From Rikenellaceae bacterium (GTDB lineage: Bacteria > Bacteroidota > Bacteroidia > Bacteroidales > Rikenellaceae), in NCBI GenBank assembly GCA_031262465.1, contig JAISHQ010000064.1, positions 1 through 32,685 of the forward strand: a stretch of 32,685 nucleotides of DNA, given 5' to 3'. This document shows positions 2,591 to 32,685 of the stretch, in pieces. The number at the start of each line of letters is the position of its first letter. Positions within the stretch are counted from its first letter, which is position 1. The translations under genes and the position numbers were made by a program. A model generated the notes under the pieces. That model was not told the DNA's origin and did no database searches. It was given only the letters and a program-made list of their open reading frames with translations.

Positions 2591-2693
2591 TGAATTATGA
2601 GTTATGAATTATGAATTATGAATTGGGGCTTCGCCGCACAAAAAAGCAAGGCCGAGTAAAAACCAATAATTCATAATTTATAATTCATAATTA
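2591..2693. repeat. MITE-like repeat, copy 1: AATTATGAATT ends with a GC-rich core
   Basis: Tandem units of AATTATGA on the left and AATTCATAA on the right form inverted ends around a core at 2625-2656 (GGGGCTTCGCCGC, an A-run, then AAGGCCGAG). The same core, with two differences, occurs in the opposite orientation at 14010-14042. The right end supplies the stop codon region of argB: its TAA at 2691-2693 lies within the terminal AATTATGA sequence. No coding capacity is seen. It is probably a non-autonomous mobile element or a short structured repeat. Confidence 0.75.
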
Positions 2694-3470
2694 CTTGTTT
2701 CTTAGCGTCGTTCCGCCGTAGCCGGGTTGGGAGAGCATTTCGGCGTTGCAGATGACGACGGAGCGGACTCCTCCGGCGATCGCTTTGAAGGCGTTTTCGA
2801 GCTTGGGGATCATCCCTTCGGAGACGATGCCCTGGGCCTTCAGTTCGGCGAAATAGGCCGGGGTAATCTCGGGCAGGACAGAGGTTTCGTCGTTGACATC
2901 CAACAGCACGCCCGCTTTTTCAAAGCAGTAAACCAATTCGACCTCGTCGATCGCCGACATCCCCAGCGCGATGGTCTGCGCCACCGTGTCGGCATTGGTG
3001 TTGAGCAGGTCGCCCGCTTCGGAGGCGGTGATTGGCGCGACAACGAGGGTAAACCCGCCCTCGATCAGCGTTTGGGCTGTTCTGATGCCGAATTTTTCGG
3101 GAATCGGGTCGCCCACAAAGCCGTAATCGACCGGGCTGGCGGCGCGCTTTTGGGAGACAATCAGCCGACCGTCGGCCCCGCTCAGCCCCAGCGCGTTGCA
3201 CCCCAAAGTTTGCAGGCGGTTGACGATCGACTTGTTGATCCACCCGGCATAGACCATCGTAACCACCTGAAGCGTAGGGGCATCCGTCACCCGGCGGCCG
3301 TCGATCATTTGCGTCTCAATGCCGAGCGATTTCGAAATGGCCGTGGCGATCTTTCCGCCGCCGTGAACCAATATTTTATCGCCCTCCAACGCCGCGAAAT
3401 CGGAGAGAAAACGGGAGAGCTTCTCCGGGTTATCGACAACGTTTCCTCCGATTTTTATGACCTTTATCAT
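2691..3470 (-). CDS. argB: Acetylglutamate kinase (ArgB)
   Basis: A 259-residue amino-acid kinase family protein catalysing phosphorylation of N-acyl-glutamate, the second step of arginine synthesis. Visible features are KIGGN (6-10), the glycine-rich HGGGK (36-40), LSGADGRL in the middle and NADTVAQTIA near the C-terminal half. Length fits the short ArgB form (about 260). The ATG overlaps the argD stop by 4 bases (3467-3470), so the two are translationally coupled. Some Bacteroides use N-succinyl rather than N-acetyl intermediates; the transcarbamylase that would decide this is not in the window, so the acyl group is left open. The TAA stop lies inside the adjacent AT-rich repeat. Confidence 0.95.
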   Translation of the reverse strand: MIKVIKIGGNVVDNPEKLSRFLSDFAALEGDKILVHGGGKIATAISKSLGIETQMIDGRRVTDAPTLQVVTMVYAGWINKSIVNRLQTLGCNALGLSGADGRLIVSQKRAASPVDYGFVGDPIPEKFGIRTAQTLIEGGFTLVVAPITASEAGDLLNTNADTVAQTIALGMSAIDEVELVYCFEKAGVLLDVNDETSVLPEITPAYFAELKAQGIVSEGMIPKLENAFKAIAGGVRSVVICNAEMLSQPGYGGTTLRNK

Positions 3471-4612
3471 AGCTCAGAATCAGCTAATTGCTTTCGGAAT
3501 GACGTAAGGAAAATATCCGCCTGCTCGCGAGTCAAGTTGAGCGGAGGCAGGATGCGCACCGTGTTTTTGTTGCCCGAACCGCTGACGAAAACGTGCTCGT
3601 CGAAGAGCATCCGTTTGCGCAGGGAGGCCGTGTCGAAGGGCAGTTCGATCCCGATCATCATCCCCCGACCACGTACCTCTTTGACTTCCGGTATTTTACG
3701 CAGTTCGTCGATCAGGTACTGCCCCAACAGGGCGGCATTTTCCATCAGGTTTTCTTCGCAGATCACGTCGGTCACGGCAATGGCGGCGGCACACGCTAAG
3801 TGGTTGCCCCCGAACGTGGTGCCCAACATTCCGTACTTCGGGGCGATGTGCGGGGCGATAGAGATAGCACCGATCGGGAAGCCGTTGGCGATCCCTTTGG
3901 CCATCGAATAGATGTCGGCGTTGACCCCCGCCCAATCGTGTGAATAGTATTTGCCCGTTCGTCCGCACCCGCACTGCACCGCGTCGGCGATGTAAACCGC
4001 GCCATAACGGTCACACAGGCTCCGGATCGCGCGCAGAAATTCCGAAGTGGCCGGAACGATGCCCGCCACGCCCTGAATGCCCTCGACGATAACGCCCGCG
4101 ATTTCGTCGGGGTGTTGCTCAAAAACCTTTTCGAGTGCCTCCACGTCGTTCATCGGCGAGAAAATCACGTGATCGGTCTCGTTGACCGGCGCGACGATTT
4201 TCGGGTTGTCGGTGGCGGCAACGGCCAGCGAGGTACGCCCGTGGAACGCCCCGGTGAAAGCGATGATTTTCGAGCGGCCGGTATGGAACGAGGCCAGCTT
4301 CATCGCATTTTCGTTGGCCTCCGCGCCCGAGTTGCAGAGGAAAAGCTGGTAATCGGTTTTTCCGGAAAGCTCGCCCAATTTCTCGGCCAGCGTGTGTTGC
4401 AGGCCGATAATCACCGAGTTGGAGTAAAAACCGATGCGGCTGAGTTGTTCGCTGATCGTCTTTACATAATGGGGGTGGGTATGGCCGATCGAAATCACGG
4501 CATGGCCGCCGTACATATCGAGGTATTTGTTCCCCTCCGTGTCCCACAACCAAGCCCCCTCGGCCCGTTGCAGGTCGATGTCGTAGACGGGGTAAACGTC
4601 GAATAGTTTCAT
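3467..4612 (-). CDS. argD: Acetylornithine (or succinylornithine) aminotransferase (ArgD)
   Basis: A 381-residue class III PLP aminotransferase converting N-acyl-glutamate semialdehyde to N-acyl-ornithine. NSGAEANENAMKLA (94-107) is the phosphate-binding segment, D210 lies in the ADAVQCGCGRTG motif, and K239 in YSMAKGIANGFPIGA is the PLP Schiff-base lysine. Length is normal for ArgD. The start at 4612 gives MKLFDVYPVYDI, typical of Bacteroidota ArgD. It sits 11 bp after argC and overlaps argB by 4 bp, in one operon. Confidence 0.95.
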   Translation of the reverse strand: MKLFDVYPVYDIDLQRAEGAWLWDTEGNKYLDMYGGHAVISIGHTHPHYVKTISEQLSRIGFYSNSVIIGLQHTLAEKLGELSGKTDYQLFLCNSGAEANENAMKLASFHTGRSKIIAFTGAFHGRTSLAVAATDNPKIVAPVNETDHVIFSPMNDVEALEKVFEQHPDEIAGVIVEGIQGVAGIVPATSEFLRAIRSLCDRYGAVYIADAVQCGCGRTGKYYSHDWAGVNADIYSMAKGIANGFPIGAISIAPHIAPKYGMLGTTFGGNHLACAAAIAVTDVICEENLMENAALLGQYLIDELRKIPEVKEVRGRGMMIGIELPFDTASLRKRMLFDEHVFVSGSGNKNTVRILPPLNLTREQADIFLTSFRKQLADSEL

Positions 4613-4623
4613 TTCTCTTTGTT

Positions 4624-5607
4624 TTAAAAAGCGGAGGCCTTTAGCCGTAAACCGGAGTCCTCTGGCAAATCGAACAGCAGATTCAGGTTTTGTACGGCCT
4701 GACCGCTTGCGCCTTTGAGCAGATTGTCTATCGTGCTGGTTATCAGCAGTTTATCGCCGTGTTTTTCGAGCGCGACGAGGCATTTGTTGGTGTTGACCAC
4801 CTGTTTCAGGTTGATCGGGCCGTCGCTCACGTGGGTAAACGCGGCCTCGCGGTAATAGGCCTTGTAGAGGTCGAGGGCCTCGGAGAGGCTTCCGGCAAAA
4901 TCGGTGTAGATCGAGGCAAAAATGCCCCGCGTAAAGTCGCCCCGGTAGGGGATAAAGCGGATCGAAGCGTCGAAGCCGGGTTGCAGGGTGTGCAAGGTCT
5001 CGCCGATCTCGTTCAGGTGCTGATGCTCAAAGGCTTTGTAGATCGAAACGTTGTTGGCTCGCCACGTAAAATGGGTGGTCGCCGAGAGTGCCTGCCCGGC
5101 ACCGGTCGAACCGGTCGTGGCCGAAATATGTACATCGCTCTTCAACAGTCCGGCGGCGGCCAACGGCAACAGCCCCAATTGCAGGCAGGTGGCAAAACAG
5201 CCGGGGTTGGCGATGGCCTGCGCCCCACGGATCGCCTCGCGGTTCACCTCCGGCAGACCGTAGACAAAGCGGTGATTCGCGCTTTGGGTGCGGGTGTGCA
5301 GGCGGAAATCTTGACTCAGGTCGATCACCTTTACGTGAGCGGGCACCTCGTTGCGCTCCATGAACTTCACAGCGGCTCCGTGGCCGACGCACAGGATCAG
5401 CACATCGACATCGTAAGACAAGGTGTCGGTGAATTTCATCTCGGTATCGCCCAACAGGTCGGTATGAACCTGATAGAGCGGGTTGCCGGCGTTGCTTTCG
5501 CTGTGGACATAAGCCAATTGCACCTGCGGGTGGTTAAGCAGAAGCCGGATGGCCTCGCCCCCCGTGTAACCGGCACCGCCGATGATGGCCGCTTGGATGG
5601 TTTTCAT
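4624..5607 (-). CDS. argC: N-acetyl-gamma-glutamyl-phosphate reductase (ArgC)
   Basis: A 327-residue NAD(P)H-dependent reductase that turns N-acyl-glutamyl phosphate into the semialdehyde. The nucleotide-binding motif IIGGAGYTGGE is at 8-18 and the active-site cysteine C137 is in NPGCFAT; STGAG in the middle and HRHQ-like residues in EHQHLNEI are also family features. Length fits the short type. Its ATG (5605-5607) is three bases after the argG stop, so it is in the same transcript. Confidence 0.95.
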   Translation of the reverse strand: MKTIQAAIIGGAGYTGGEAIRLLLNHPQVQLAYVHSESNAGNPLYQVHTDLLGDTEMKFTDTLSYDVDVLILCVGHGAAVKFMERNEVPAHVKVIDLSQDFRLHTRTQSANHRFVYGLPEVNREAIRGAQAIANPGCFATCLQLGLLPLAAAGLLKSDVHISATTGSTGAGQALSATTHFTWRANNVSIYKAFEHQHLNEIGETLHTLQPGFDASIRFIPYRGDFTRGIFASIYTDFAGSLSEALDLYKAYYREAAFTHVSDGPINLKQVVNTNKCLVALEKHGDKLLITSTIDNLLKGASGQAVQNLNLLFDLPEDSGLRLKASAF

Positions 5608-5610
5608 GGA

Positions 5611-6798
5611 TTATTCCTCATTTATTTTCCGGTACATAGACACCTGATTCCCAAAAATTTTGGAGAACCCTTTCACGTCTTCACCCGTCCAATTGGCCAT
5701 GGTTTCGCCATAAGCTCCGAACTTGTTCGACATCAGGTCGTGCGTGCTCTCGATGCCGATCACATCGAAGCGATAGGGCGCGAGGTCGACAAAGACATCG
5801 CCCGAAACCTGTTTCTGACTGCTTTCGAGCATCGCCTCCATGTCGCGCATCACCGGGTCAAAATATTGACCCTCGTGGAGGTAGTTGCCGTAAAAGGCCG
5901 AAATTTGGTCTTTCCAGAACAATTGCCACTTGGTCAGCGTGTGTTTTTCGAGCAGGTGGTGCGATTTGATGATAATCATTGGCGCGGCCGCCTCGAAGCC
6001 CACGCGCCCTTTGATGCCGATGATCGTGTCGCCCACGTGCATCCCGCGACCGACCGCATAGGGTGCCGCGATTTTTTGCAACCCGCGGATGCCCTCGATC
6101 CGGTCGTCGTAGCGTGTGCCGTCGATAGCGACCAATTCGCCCTGCTCAAAGGTCAGCGTGACGCGCCGGGGTTCGGTGGCCGTGAGTTGGCTCGGATAGG
6201 CCGCTTCGGGCAAGGTTTCGGAGGAGGTCAATGTTTCCCGACCGCCGACCGAGGTGCCCCAAACGCCTTGATTGATCGAGTATTCGGCCTTTTTGAAGTC
6301 GAAGTCGACCCCGTGCGAGCGCAGGTATTCGATCTCCTGCTCGCGGCTCAAGCGCATTTCGCGGATCAGCGCGATCACCTCGATTTCGGGTGCAACGATG
6401 CCGAAAATCAGGTCGAAACGCACTTGGTCGTTACCCGCGCCAGTCGAACCGTGGCAGATGTAATCGGCACCGATCGCTTTGGCGTACTCGGCCACAGCCG
6501 TCGCCTGCACAATGCGTTCGGAGCTGACCGAAATGGGGTAGGTGCCGTTTTTGAGGACGTTGCCGAAGATCATGTACTTGATCGTGTCGTTGTAATATTG
6601 TTGCGAAACGTCTAAGCGCACGTAGTTTTTCACGCCCAACGCCCGGGCGCGGCTCTCAATTTTCTGAAGTTCTTCCGGCGAAAATCCGCCCGTATCGGCC
6701 AGGGCCGCATACACTTCCAACCCCATATCCTGAGCAAGGTAAATCGCACAAAACGAGGTATCTAATCCACCGCTAAAGGCTAAAACCACTTTTTTCAT
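5611..6798 (-). CDS. argG: Argininosuccinate synthase (ArgG)
   Basis: A 395-residue enzyme condensing citrulline and aspartate with ATP to argininosuccinate. The ATP-pyrophosphatase P-loop SGGLDTS is at 9-15; STGAGNDQVRF carries the aspartate/citrulline-binding residues. Length is standard (about 400). It follows the GNAT gene by 32 bp and precedes argC by 3 bp. The transcript order GNAT-argG-argC-argD resembles the arginine cluster of Bacteroides as I recall it. Confidence 0.97.
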   Translation of the reverse strand: MKKVVLAFSGGLDTSFCAIYLAQDMGLEVYAALADTGGFSPEELQKIESRARALGVKNYVRLDVSQQYYNDTIKYMIFGNVLKNGTYPISVSSERIVQATAVAEYAKAIGADYICHGSTGAGNDQVRFDLIFGIVAPEIEVIALIREMRLSREQEIEYLRSHGVDFDFKKAEYSINQGVWGTSVGGRETLTSSETLPEAAYPSQLTATEPRRVTLTFEQGELVAIDGTRYDDRIEGIRGLQKIAAPYAVGRGMHVGDTIIGIKGRVGFEAAAPMIIIKSHHLLEKHTLTKWQLFWKDQISAFYGNYLHEGQYFDPVMRDMEAMLESSQKQVSGDVFVDLAPYRFDVIGIESTHDLMSNKFGAYGETMANWTGEDVKGFSKIFGNQVSMYRKINEE

Positions 6799-6830: not shown

Positions 6831-7418
6831 TTATTGCAAATCAGGATCGTCAGGTTTTTGTACCTTTTCTTTATCCACCGCCGGGTCGAACAACATGGCC
6901 GTGCAGAGGCAGTTTTTCCGATCCTTGCTCTGGAGGATCGGGTAGTTGACACAGCTCTCGCACCCCTTCCAAAAGTTGTCGTCGTCCGTCAGCTCGGAGT
7001 AGATCACCGGACGGTAACCCAGGTCGCTGTTGATCTTCATCACCGGCAGACCGGTCGTCAGCCCGAAGAGCTTAGCCCCCGGGAACTTCTTGAGCGACAG
7101 GAAGAACGTCTTGGTCTTGATGGCGCGCGCCAAGCCGATGCGCCGGTACTCGGGGTTGATGATAAGCCCCGAATTGACCACATACAGCCCGTGACCCCAG
7201 GTCTCGATGTAGCTGAACCCGGCCCAAGAGCCGTCCTCTTTTTTCAGGGCGATCACCGCCTTGCCCTCGCGCATCTTCATGGCCACATATTCCGGCGAAC
7301 GGCGGGCGATGCCCGTTCCGCGCGCCCGAGCCGAACTGGCCATCTCGGCACAAATCTCTTCGGCGTACTTTACGTGCGATTCGTTGGCTACGAGTACATC
7401 AAAATCGTTGATTGTCAT
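6831..7418 (-). CDS. GNAT N-acetyltransferase, first structural gene of the arginine operon (ArgA-like)
   Basis: A 195-residue GNAT-fold protein. The acetyl-CoA-binding region is around NPEYRRIGLARAIKTK (88-103). The C-terminal part holds four cysteines, C153, C156, C170 and C172 (CESC and CLC), which could bind a metal; this is unusual for simple GNATs but, as I recall, is conserved in Bacteroidota relatives. Its position at the head of the operon suggests that it acylates glutamate (acetyl or succinyl) as the committed step, because no classical argA or argJ is seen here; that role is inferred. The start at 7418 is about 120 bp downstream of an arginine-rich leader peptide. No Shine-Dalgarno site is evident. 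Confidence 0.8.
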   Translation of the reverse strand: MTINDFDVLVANESHVKYAEEICAEMASSARARGTGIARRSPEYVAMKMREGKAVIALKKEDGSWAGFSYIETWGHGLYVVNSGLIINPEYRRIGLARAIKTKTFFLSLKKFPGAKLFGLTTGLPVMKINSDLGYRPVIYSELTDDDNFWKGCESCVNYPILQSKDRKNCLCTAMLFDPAVDKEKVQKPDDPDLQ

Positions 7419-7463
7419 TGTACTTGCTGGTAAAAATAAAAAGAATTGACGACAAATAAAAAT

Positions 7464-7536
7464 TGGAGTTTCTCGGGGGCGGCAGCTTTCCGCCTGCCCG
7501 GGGTGTAGATGGGTGCTCCGGCCCGGAGCCGGGCGG
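7464..7536 (-). promoter_or_regulatory. Candidate attenuator: competing hairpins after the Arg leader peptide
   Basis: On the minus-strand RNA, right after the leader-peptide stop, CCGCCCGG (7529-7536) can pair with CCGGGCAGG (7493-7501), with one bulge. The latter also forms the 5' arm of a strong hairpin at 7474-7500 (CGGG-GGCGG paired with CCGCC-CCCG, CA bulge, loop AAAGCUG). These pairings exclude each other, as in antiterminator/terminator switches. CCGCCCGG can also fold locally, as GCCCGG/CCGGGC, or a neighbouring GCTCC/GGAGC hairpin (7515-7529) can form. A U-rich stretch (AATTTTTATTTG, 7453-7464) follows the 3' hairpin by about 10 nt, longer than in a textbook terminator, so the terminator role is inferred. 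Confidence 0.55.
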
Positions 7537-7537
7537 T

Positions 7538-7633
7538 CTATCGTCGTCGTCGTTCGGTGGAGAACATGGCCAAAGCGGCGCTGTCGTCAGACAGTGCCCT
7601 ATTGAGCGGGAGGATGGAAAGGAAATACGCCAT
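7538..7633 (-). CDS. Putative arginine-operon leader peptide ending in four Arg codons
   Basis: A 31-codon ORF in the leader of the arginine operon. It starts MAYFLSILPL and ends STERRRR before TAG; the last four sense codons are CGA-CGA-CGA-CGA (7541-7552), and one more Arg (AGG) occurs earlier. The start is about 17 nt downstream of the predicted transcription start and about 120 nt before the GNAT gene. There is no similarity to a protein family. Its position, size, terminal run of codons for the pathway's end product and the hairpins directly after the stop together match leader peptides that sense charged tRNA by ribosome stalling. No ArgR-type repressor gene is visible in the window. 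Confidence 0.75.
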   Translation of the reverse strand: MAYFLSILPLNRALSDDSAALAMFSTERRRR

Positions 7634-7655
7634 TGTTTTGTTCTCTATGAGGGGA

Positions 7656-7663
7656 CAAAAGTA
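7656..7663 (-). promoter_or_regulatory. -7 box of the arginine operon (TACTTTTG)
   Basis: A perfect match to the Bacteroides -7 consensus TAnnTTTG on the minus strand, 22 bp upstream of the leader-peptide ATG. No convincing TTTG -33 box is seen at the usual 19-21 bp spacing. Transcription would start near 7650. Confidence 0.6.
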
Positions 7664-7702
7664 CAAATAATTCCGGGAATCTGTTATTCTCCCCCCTGTT
7701 TT

Positions 7703-32579: not shown

Positions 32580-32582
32580 GAA

Positions 32583-32685
32583 GTGGCGGTGACCTACTCT
32601 CCCACACTTGTGATGCAGTACCATCGGCGCGATTGGGCTTAACTACTCTGTTCGGGATGGGAAGAGGTGGAACCCCAATGCTATA
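32583..32685 (-). rRNA. rrf: 5S ribosomal RNA (partial at the window edge)
   Basis: The complementary strand reads TATAGCATTGGGGTTCCACC, CCCATCCCGAACAGAG, AGTTAAGCCC, CGCCGATGGTACTGC and GTGGGAGAGTAGGTCACCGCC, the conserved 5S landmarks in order. Only about the first ten bases are missing at the window edge. It marks the 3' end of an rRNA operon transcribed leftwards, with its 16S and 23S genes presumably outside the window. Confidence 0.97.

What the first reader, a model, noticed from the sequence alone, without database searches (positions are those of the whole stretch)
7464..7663. Arginine attenuator: leader peptide with four consecutive CGA codons before the arg operon
Seen: a TAnnTTTG box, then a 31-codon ORF ending in four CGA Arg codons and a stop, then overlapping GC-rich pairings that exclude each other (CCGCCCGG with CCGGGCAGG, against the 7474-7500 hairpin), a U-rich stretch, and then the arginine operon. 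Known: trp, his and leu leaders of enterobacteria use this logic. Inference: arginine starvation stalls ribosomes on the CGA run and favours the antiterminator. As I recall, Bacteroides arg clusters carry an argR gene in this area; none is seen here, so regulation may have switched type. Weak point: the U-tract is about 10 nt after the stem.
Basis: partly seen in the sequence, partly recalled or inferred. Interest (0 to 1): 0.88.

Follow-up and report, generated by a model that had tools for sequence, protein, structure and literature searches.

The report
Arginine leader peptide replacing ArgR repressor
In gut bacteria of the family Rikenellaceae, which have mostly lost the usual arginine repressor, a tiny gene ending in four arginine codons sits between the promoter and the arginine-making genes and very probably acts as an arginine sensor read by the ribosome.

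Summary
Minus-strand ORF 7633-7538 (MAYFLSILPLNRALSDDSAALAMFSTERRRR*) starts 22 nt after a TAnnTTTG box and precedes the GNAT-argG-argC-argD-argB operon. Twenty Rikenellaceae species in eight genera carry such a leader here: N-termini unrelated, all ending in four Arg codons and a stop (73 of 80 codons CGA, a rare codon), followed by paired RNA. Shuffles give 0.01 such ORFs per 30 loci; 12 were seen. ArgR is absent from this genome and 20 of 22 genera sampled. In 41 of 60 GNAT loci of other Bacteroidales families argR sits directly upstream; of the 19 without it six have another Arg-rich leader, of the 41 none (p=0.0005). Arginine-codon, ribosome-position control is well supported. Conserved are codon run, stop and a hairpin 4-5 nt after it; in the closest relatives the run is also complementary to a segment 18-30 nt before the GNAT start. 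Genus g7 shows a classical-looking antiterminator. No universal intrinsic terminator was found, so the output step (termination or translation) is unproven. A new variant of leader-peptide attenuation.

The parts
7656..7663 (-). TAnnTTTG (-7 type) promoter box TACTTTTG, 22 nt before the leader start codon
   Evidence: sequence; same box in 18 of 20 leaders (one of the others is cut at a contig end), and none between leader stop and GNAT in 20 of 20, whereas 16 of 17 leaderless relatives have it directly before GNAT
7538..7633 (-). leader peptide ORF, 31 codons, MAYFLSILPLNRALSDDSAALAMFSTERRRR*
   Evidence: conserved C-terminus in 13 species of the same leader type; changes seen inside the Arg run are all synonymous
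7541..7552 (-). run of four CGA arginine codons (regulatory codons), directly before the UAG stop
   Evidence: 73 of 80 run codons in 20 leaders are CGA, against 23 of 371 Arg codons in the window's genes; no tRNA-Arg(UCG) among the four tRNA-Arg found, so CGA is presumably read by the ICG tRNA (the lowest-scoring tRNA matches were not typed)
7518..7532 (-). conserved post-stop hairpin CCGGC-UCCGG-GCCGG, 5 nt after the stop
   Evidence: invariant position (4-5 nt after stop) in 13 species; on the 11 aligned, 96% of cells paired and changes on both sides at two pairs
7448..7456 (-). segment UUUGUCGUC complementary to the Arg-codon run (GACGACGA / GACGAUAGA), 28 nt before the GNAT start
   Evidence: duplex p=0.007 against shuffles; the same complementarity at the same place in the sister species and in genus g6
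7430..7442 (-). U-rich tract UUUUUAUUUUUAC after that segment (candidate termination site or start-region U/A tract)
   Evidence: sequence; role inferred
7476..7498 (-).
   Evidence: folds but absent in the sister species
6831..7418 (-). GNAT acetyltransferase gene, first gene of the arg operon
   Evidence: GNAT followed by argG in all 30 family loci
2691..6798 (-). argG, argC, argD, argB
   Evidence: NCBIfam matches

Best explanation
An arginine-sensing leader peptide controls the arg operon in cis. Shown by comparison: the ORF's Arg run, the stop and the post-stop hairpin are under selection, the promoter box lies before the ORF, and ArgR is gone. Inferred: when charged tRNA-Arg is scarce, the ribosome stalls on the rare CGA run just before the stop. 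The post-stop hairpin can then form, and the run is physically masked. When arginine is plentiful the ribosome reaches the stop, at first covers the hairpin's 5' arm, and then leaves. In the window's own lineage (genera g1 and g6) the freed codon run pairs with UUUGUCGUC 28 nt before the GNAT start, making an outer stem followed by a U-tract that lowers expression, most likely by terminating transcription. In g7 the same sensing is coupled to a classical-looking post-stop 2:3 antiterminator. Expression of the arg operon is thus raised by arginine starvation.
For: Leader in 20 species of 8 genera at the same place, with unrelated N-termini but an RRRR-stop C-terminus. 12 of 30 loci against 0.01 by shuffles. 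Only synonymous changes inside the Arg run; ALSL codons vary synonymously in g7. CGA 73/80 in runs against 6% background. Promoter box before the leader, never between it and GNAT. Hairpin with compensatory changes. Run:downstream complementarity p=0.007, 0.02, 0.007, 0.003 in L001, L002, L005, L006, and 0.004 over all 13, with an A-U to G-C double change at one pair. g7 2:3 pairing, summed energy below all 300 shuffles, kept by a changed partner in L174. ArgR absent here and in 20/22 genera; argR directly before GNAT in 41/60 loci elsewhere in the order; Arg-rich leaders only where argR is missing, 6/19 against 0/41, p=0.0005.
Against: No expression data. No terminator conserved across this leader type: 3:4 hairpins with U-tracts are no better than shuffles. 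The run:downstream pairing is not significant in g9, g20, g21 and most of g11, and its covariation rests on five sequences (49 of 500 shuffles reach the score). Predicted accessibility of the GNAT start region does not change between states in the window. Several family genera have neither leader nor ArgR.
Confidence: 0.72

Rival explanations
1. Classical intrinsic-terminator attenuator: post-stop CCGCCCGG pairs with CCGGGCAGG (antiterminator) against the 7474-7500 terminator hairpin.
For: The segments exist and fold stably in the window; the g7 leaders do show a conserved 2:3 pairing directly after the stop and, in some species, 3:4 hairpins with U-tracts.
Against: The GC-rich segments are absent in the sister species and in all other leaders of this type; the U-tract is about 12 nt from the stem; 3:4 terminators do not exceed shuffles (for g7 p=0.07).
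Confidence: 0.2
2. Control of translation rather than transcription: the leader RNA fold, set by the stalled ribosome, limits 30S access to the GNAT start, as proposed for the actinobacterial LEU element, where the Leu-codon run pairs with the Shine-Dalgarno box.
For: The segment best matching the codon run lies 18-30 nt before the GNAT start in all six species of genera g1, g5, g6 and g20 (not significant in g20, p=0.06 in g5); LEU element precedent (PMC1262725); g7 has a conserved hairpin AUCUUG-NANA-CAAGAU over the start codon.
Against: In the window the segment ends 28 nt before the AUG, and predicted unpairedness of the start region is 0.60 free and 0.61 with a stalled ribosome.
Confidence: 0.25
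3. Rho-dependent or mRNA-decay control gated by leader translation, as in Salmonella speF orf34, where paused ribosomes on Arg codons let a downstream-of-stop hairpin form.
For: Same two features, consecutive Arg codons and a hairpin just after the stop (PMC6386406); no universal intrinsic terminator; more C than G after the hairpin (277 C, 208 G).
Against: The C excess is modest and no shared motif follows the hairpin.
Confidence: 0.2
4. Not regulatory: a chance ORF or a small functional protein.
For: N-termini vary freely, with mostly non-synonymous differences in g11, as in any unselected sequence.
Against: Conserved RRRR-stop end, start position after the promoter box, fixed location and shuffle expectation of 0.01.
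Confidence: 0.03

Closest known systems
Leader-peptide transcription attenuators (trp, his, leu, ilv; Proteobacteria, Actinobacteria, some Firmicutes)
   Same: Short ORF with a run of codons for the pathway's product, between promoter and biosynthetic operon, followed by alternative RNA pairings.
   Different: Arginine as the sensed residue for an arginine operon, in Bacteroidota; run at the very end of the ORF; no conserved terminator in this leader type; no sequence relation.
Actinobacterial LEU element (leuA leader; PMC1262725)
   Same: The codon run itself forms a base stem with a segment near the start of the first structural gene, enclosing further helices.
   Different: Arg instead of Leu, Bacteroidota, partner is not a Shine-Dalgarno box; only some genera show it; in the LEU case experiments cited by the authors speak against leader-codon control.
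Salmonella speF orf34 (speFL; PMC6386406)
   Same: Consecutive Arg codons as arginine sensor and a hairpin just downstream of the leader stop that forms when ribosomes pause on them.
   Different: Controls putrescine synthesis, with Rho and RNase G; Arg codons at positions 12 and 13 of 34; unrelated sequence.
S. aureus rbfL (PMC13009471)
   Same: Short ORF with rare Arg codons senses arginine limitation.
   Different: Represses a biofilm regulator by covering its ribosome-binding site; opposite sign; no RNA switch.
ArgR repressor of Bacteroidales (argR-GNAT-argG locus)
   Same: Same operon, same presumed signal.
   Different: Protein repressor; absent here, its place before GNAT taken by the leader.

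Membership tests
Leader-peptide attenuator of an amino-acid operon | Leader ORF with a run of codons for the end product, between promoter and operon | tested here: met
Leader-peptide attenuator of an amino-acid operon | Leader is translated | not testable with these tools
   Only indirect: all changes in the Arg run are synonymous and the ALSL codons of g7 vary synonymously
Leader-peptide attenuator of an amino-acid operon | RNA pairing just after the stop that the ribosome position can allow or prevent | tested here: met
   hairpin with compensatory changes; g7 2:3 pairing; that the ribosome does gate it is inferred from the spacing
Leader-peptide attenuator of an amino-acid operon | Mutually exclusive intrinsic terminator with U-tract | tested here: inconclusive
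   not above shuffles in this leader type; seen in some g7 species such as L172, summed 3:4 p=0.07
Leader-peptide attenuator of an amino-acid operon | Expression rises on starvation for the amino acid | not testable with these tools
   no expression data
LEU-like element (codon run pairs with gene start region) | Codon run complementary to a segment shortly before the first gene | tested here: met
   L001, L002, L005, L006 p 0.003-0.02 at 27-30 nt before AUG; not in g9, g21 and most of g11
LEU-like element (codon run pairs with gene start region) | Partner is the ribosome-binding site | tested here: not met
   segment ends 28 nt before AUG; start region accessibility unchanged
Known Rfam RNA family | Covariance-model match | tested here: not met
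   no match in 7400-7700 at E up to 1
ArgR-controlled arg operon | ArgR encoded in the genome | tested here: not met
   no PF01316 match in the 93% complete assembly; absent in 20 of 22 genera

The most novel reading that the evidence does not exclude
Loss of the ArgR repressor in Bacteroidales has repeatedly been followed by independent evolution of arginine-codon leader peptides at the vacated site. In the window's lineage this takes a form in which the arginine codons themselves are one arm of the inhibitory RNA helix, so the stalled ribosome switches the operon on by sitting on that arm.
Probability: 0.4. Interest if true: 0.78.

Novelty: new variant of a known kind. Interest (0 to 1): 0.64.

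Why it matters
I know of no arginine attenuator on a bacterial arginine biosynthetic operon (the Pseudomonas carAB leader, tied to pyrimidines, is the nearest case recalled), and the full-text searches made here found none. The locus offers a natural before/after series, argR-GNAT-argG in most Bacteroidales families examined and leader-GNAT-argG in some where argR is gone. Replacement of a protein repressor by a ribosome-read RNA can thus be followed step by step, in gut bacteria.

Tried and rejected
1) Rfam search: nothing for the leader. 2) A conserved 3:4 terminator overlapping the hairpin's 3' arm in this leader type: summed score reached by 19% of shuffles. 4) Sequestration of the GNAT start region: no change of predicted accessibility in the window. 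5) Stop-codon readthrough into an in-frame ORF that ends on the GNAT ATG: open in the window, closed at codon 8 in L002, and the 1-nt shift of the hairpin in L001 and L003 speaks against coding. 6) Further copies of the element in the genome: one strong model hit only. 7) Elements outside Rikenellaceae by DNA pattern: the other hits are scattered over mostly GC-rich, unrelated organisms and were taken as chance; of those only L068, L114, L133 and L136 were read.

Full report
Observation. The minus strand carries TACTTTTG (7663-7656), then 22 nt later ATG at 7633 and a 31-codon ORF that ends GAA CGA CGA CGA CGA TAG at 7538. The next gene is a GNAT acetyltransferase (7418-6831), followed by argG, argC, argD and argB.

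Conservation. GNAT was found in 45 of 61 genomes searched, the window's own included, and is followed by argG in all 30 loci examined. Thirteen of those 30 have four Arg codons plus TAG upstream of GNAT; one is cut at a contig end before its start codon. With searches by covariance model, DNA pattern over named genomes and genus g7, twenty species in eight genera carry the leader. The named ones are Rikenellaceae, uncultured Alistipes and Candidatus Avirikenella. A scan for an ORF ending in RRRR-stop finds it in 12 of 30 loci; shuffled sequence gives 0.01 and the reverse strand 0. On the GNAT tree the leader label needs two changes, and one origin is not ruled out.

Two leader types. Type A (13 species, the window included) ends in (I/V)ERRRR* or close variants. 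A hairpin follows 4-5 nt after the stop; on 11 aligned species 96% of cells pair and two pairs show double changes. Type B (g7, seven species) starts with GTG and reads V(N/K)xxALSLRRRR*. Its LSL codons vary only synonymously, and UUCCCCUGC lies directly after the stop (three nt later in L174). That segment is complementary to ACAGAGGAAC 49 nt or more downstream. The summed 2:3 energy is below all 300 shuffles, and L174 keeps the pairing with a changed partner, GCAGCGGGAAC; in three of the seven another downstream segment pairs slightly better with it. In several g7 species the ACAGAGG segment can also pair further downstream before a U-run, for example AGAGGGAGCCGCUCCUCU-UUUUUU in L172. This resembles the classical design, but the 3:4 part is only suggestive (p=0.07).

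Coding and codon choice. All departures inside the Arg run are synonymous (CGG, CGT, AGA). CGA makes 73 of 80 run codons against 23 of 371 Arg codons in the window's genes. Among the 30 tRNA loci typed, the tRNA-Arg anticodons are CCU, CCG, ACG and UCU, with no UCG. CGA is therefore presumably read by the inosine wobble, a slow pairing by general knowledge. The N-terminal part changes freely, as expected of a leader whose end alone matters.

Promoter. TAnnTTTG lies before the leader in 18 of 20 cases and never between leader and GNAT. In 16 of 17 leaderless relatives it lies directly before GNAT.

ArgR. PF01316 has no match in this genome (93% complete) and is missing from 20 of 22 genera. Of 60 GNAT loci in other Bacteroidales families, 41 have argR directly upstream. 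Six of the 19 without argR have another Arg-rich leader right after a TAnnTTTG box, such as SLNRRESRR*, LVRRCR* or SYRRPFGA*; none of the 41 do (Fisher p=0.0005; expectation below 0.15 in all). Three of the six come from one family, so the independent cases number about four, and the criterion was set after the first such leaders had been seen by eye.

How it works. A ribosome stalled in the run leaves the post-stop hairpin free, and one at the stop covers its 5' arm; in the model of the window the hairpin region has 7.5 pairs with the ribosome on Arg2 and 0 at the stop (this follows from the assumed footprint). In g1 and g6 the run is complementary to a segment 27-30 nt before the GNAT start. 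Shuffle p values are 0.007, 0.02, 0.007 and 0.003, and 0.004 over all 13. The segment is an island of conservation between the two g6 species; in the two g1 species the same GUCGUC occurs at the same distance from the start, although the automatic alignment does not line them up. One pair changes A-U to G-C, but with five sequences, aligned by hand in this register, the covariation score is reached by 49 of 500 shuffles. In the window this stem is followed by AAUUC-UUUUUAUUUUU. I therefore favour masking of the codon run as the switch here, with termination as the likelier output. The start region's predicted accessibility does not change, which weakens a purely translational reading. A conserved intrinsic terminator was looked for and not found, so the output step remains open.

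Compared with what is known. It works like an amino-acid attenuator. Its closest mechanistic parallels are the LEU element and speF orf34 with its downstream-of-stop hairpin. It matches no Rfam family. Leader-like short ORFs have been noted in Bacteroides and Flavobacterium transcriptomes, but no arginine leader on an arg operon was found in the literature searched; most subscription papers are not in that library.

Noticed in passing
L185-L187, L179, L199, L221, L233, L193, L195 (other Bacteroidales families): Further Arg-rich leader ORFs before GNAT where argR is missing (SLNRRESRR*, HVRRYA*, LVRRCR*, SYRRPFGA*, SPRPGRG*, IRVRRG...), most with a hairpin soon after the stop.
   Followed up: partly
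L005, L006, L008 against L193, L195, L233: Post-stop hairpins of different families share a pentaloop UACGU or UACGC closed by a U-A pair; type A loops in general are UNCG or CACG plus one base.
   Followed up: no
L004, L007, L170-L174, last 25 nt before GNAT: In genus g7 an inverted repeat AUCUUG-NANA-CAAGAU(G) covers the GNAT start codon in all seven species.
   Followed up: no
window 7537-7415 (-): After the leader stop the frame stays open for 40 codons to a TGA that overlaps the GNAT ATG; not conserved in the sister species.
   Followed up: partly
L186 and L187, about 10 nt after the leader stop: Hairpin with a compensatory change (UGCCC-CACUA-GGGCA against UUGUCC-CACUA-GGACAA).
   Followed up: no
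window 32581-32685 (-): 5S rRNA at the window's end.
   Followed up: no
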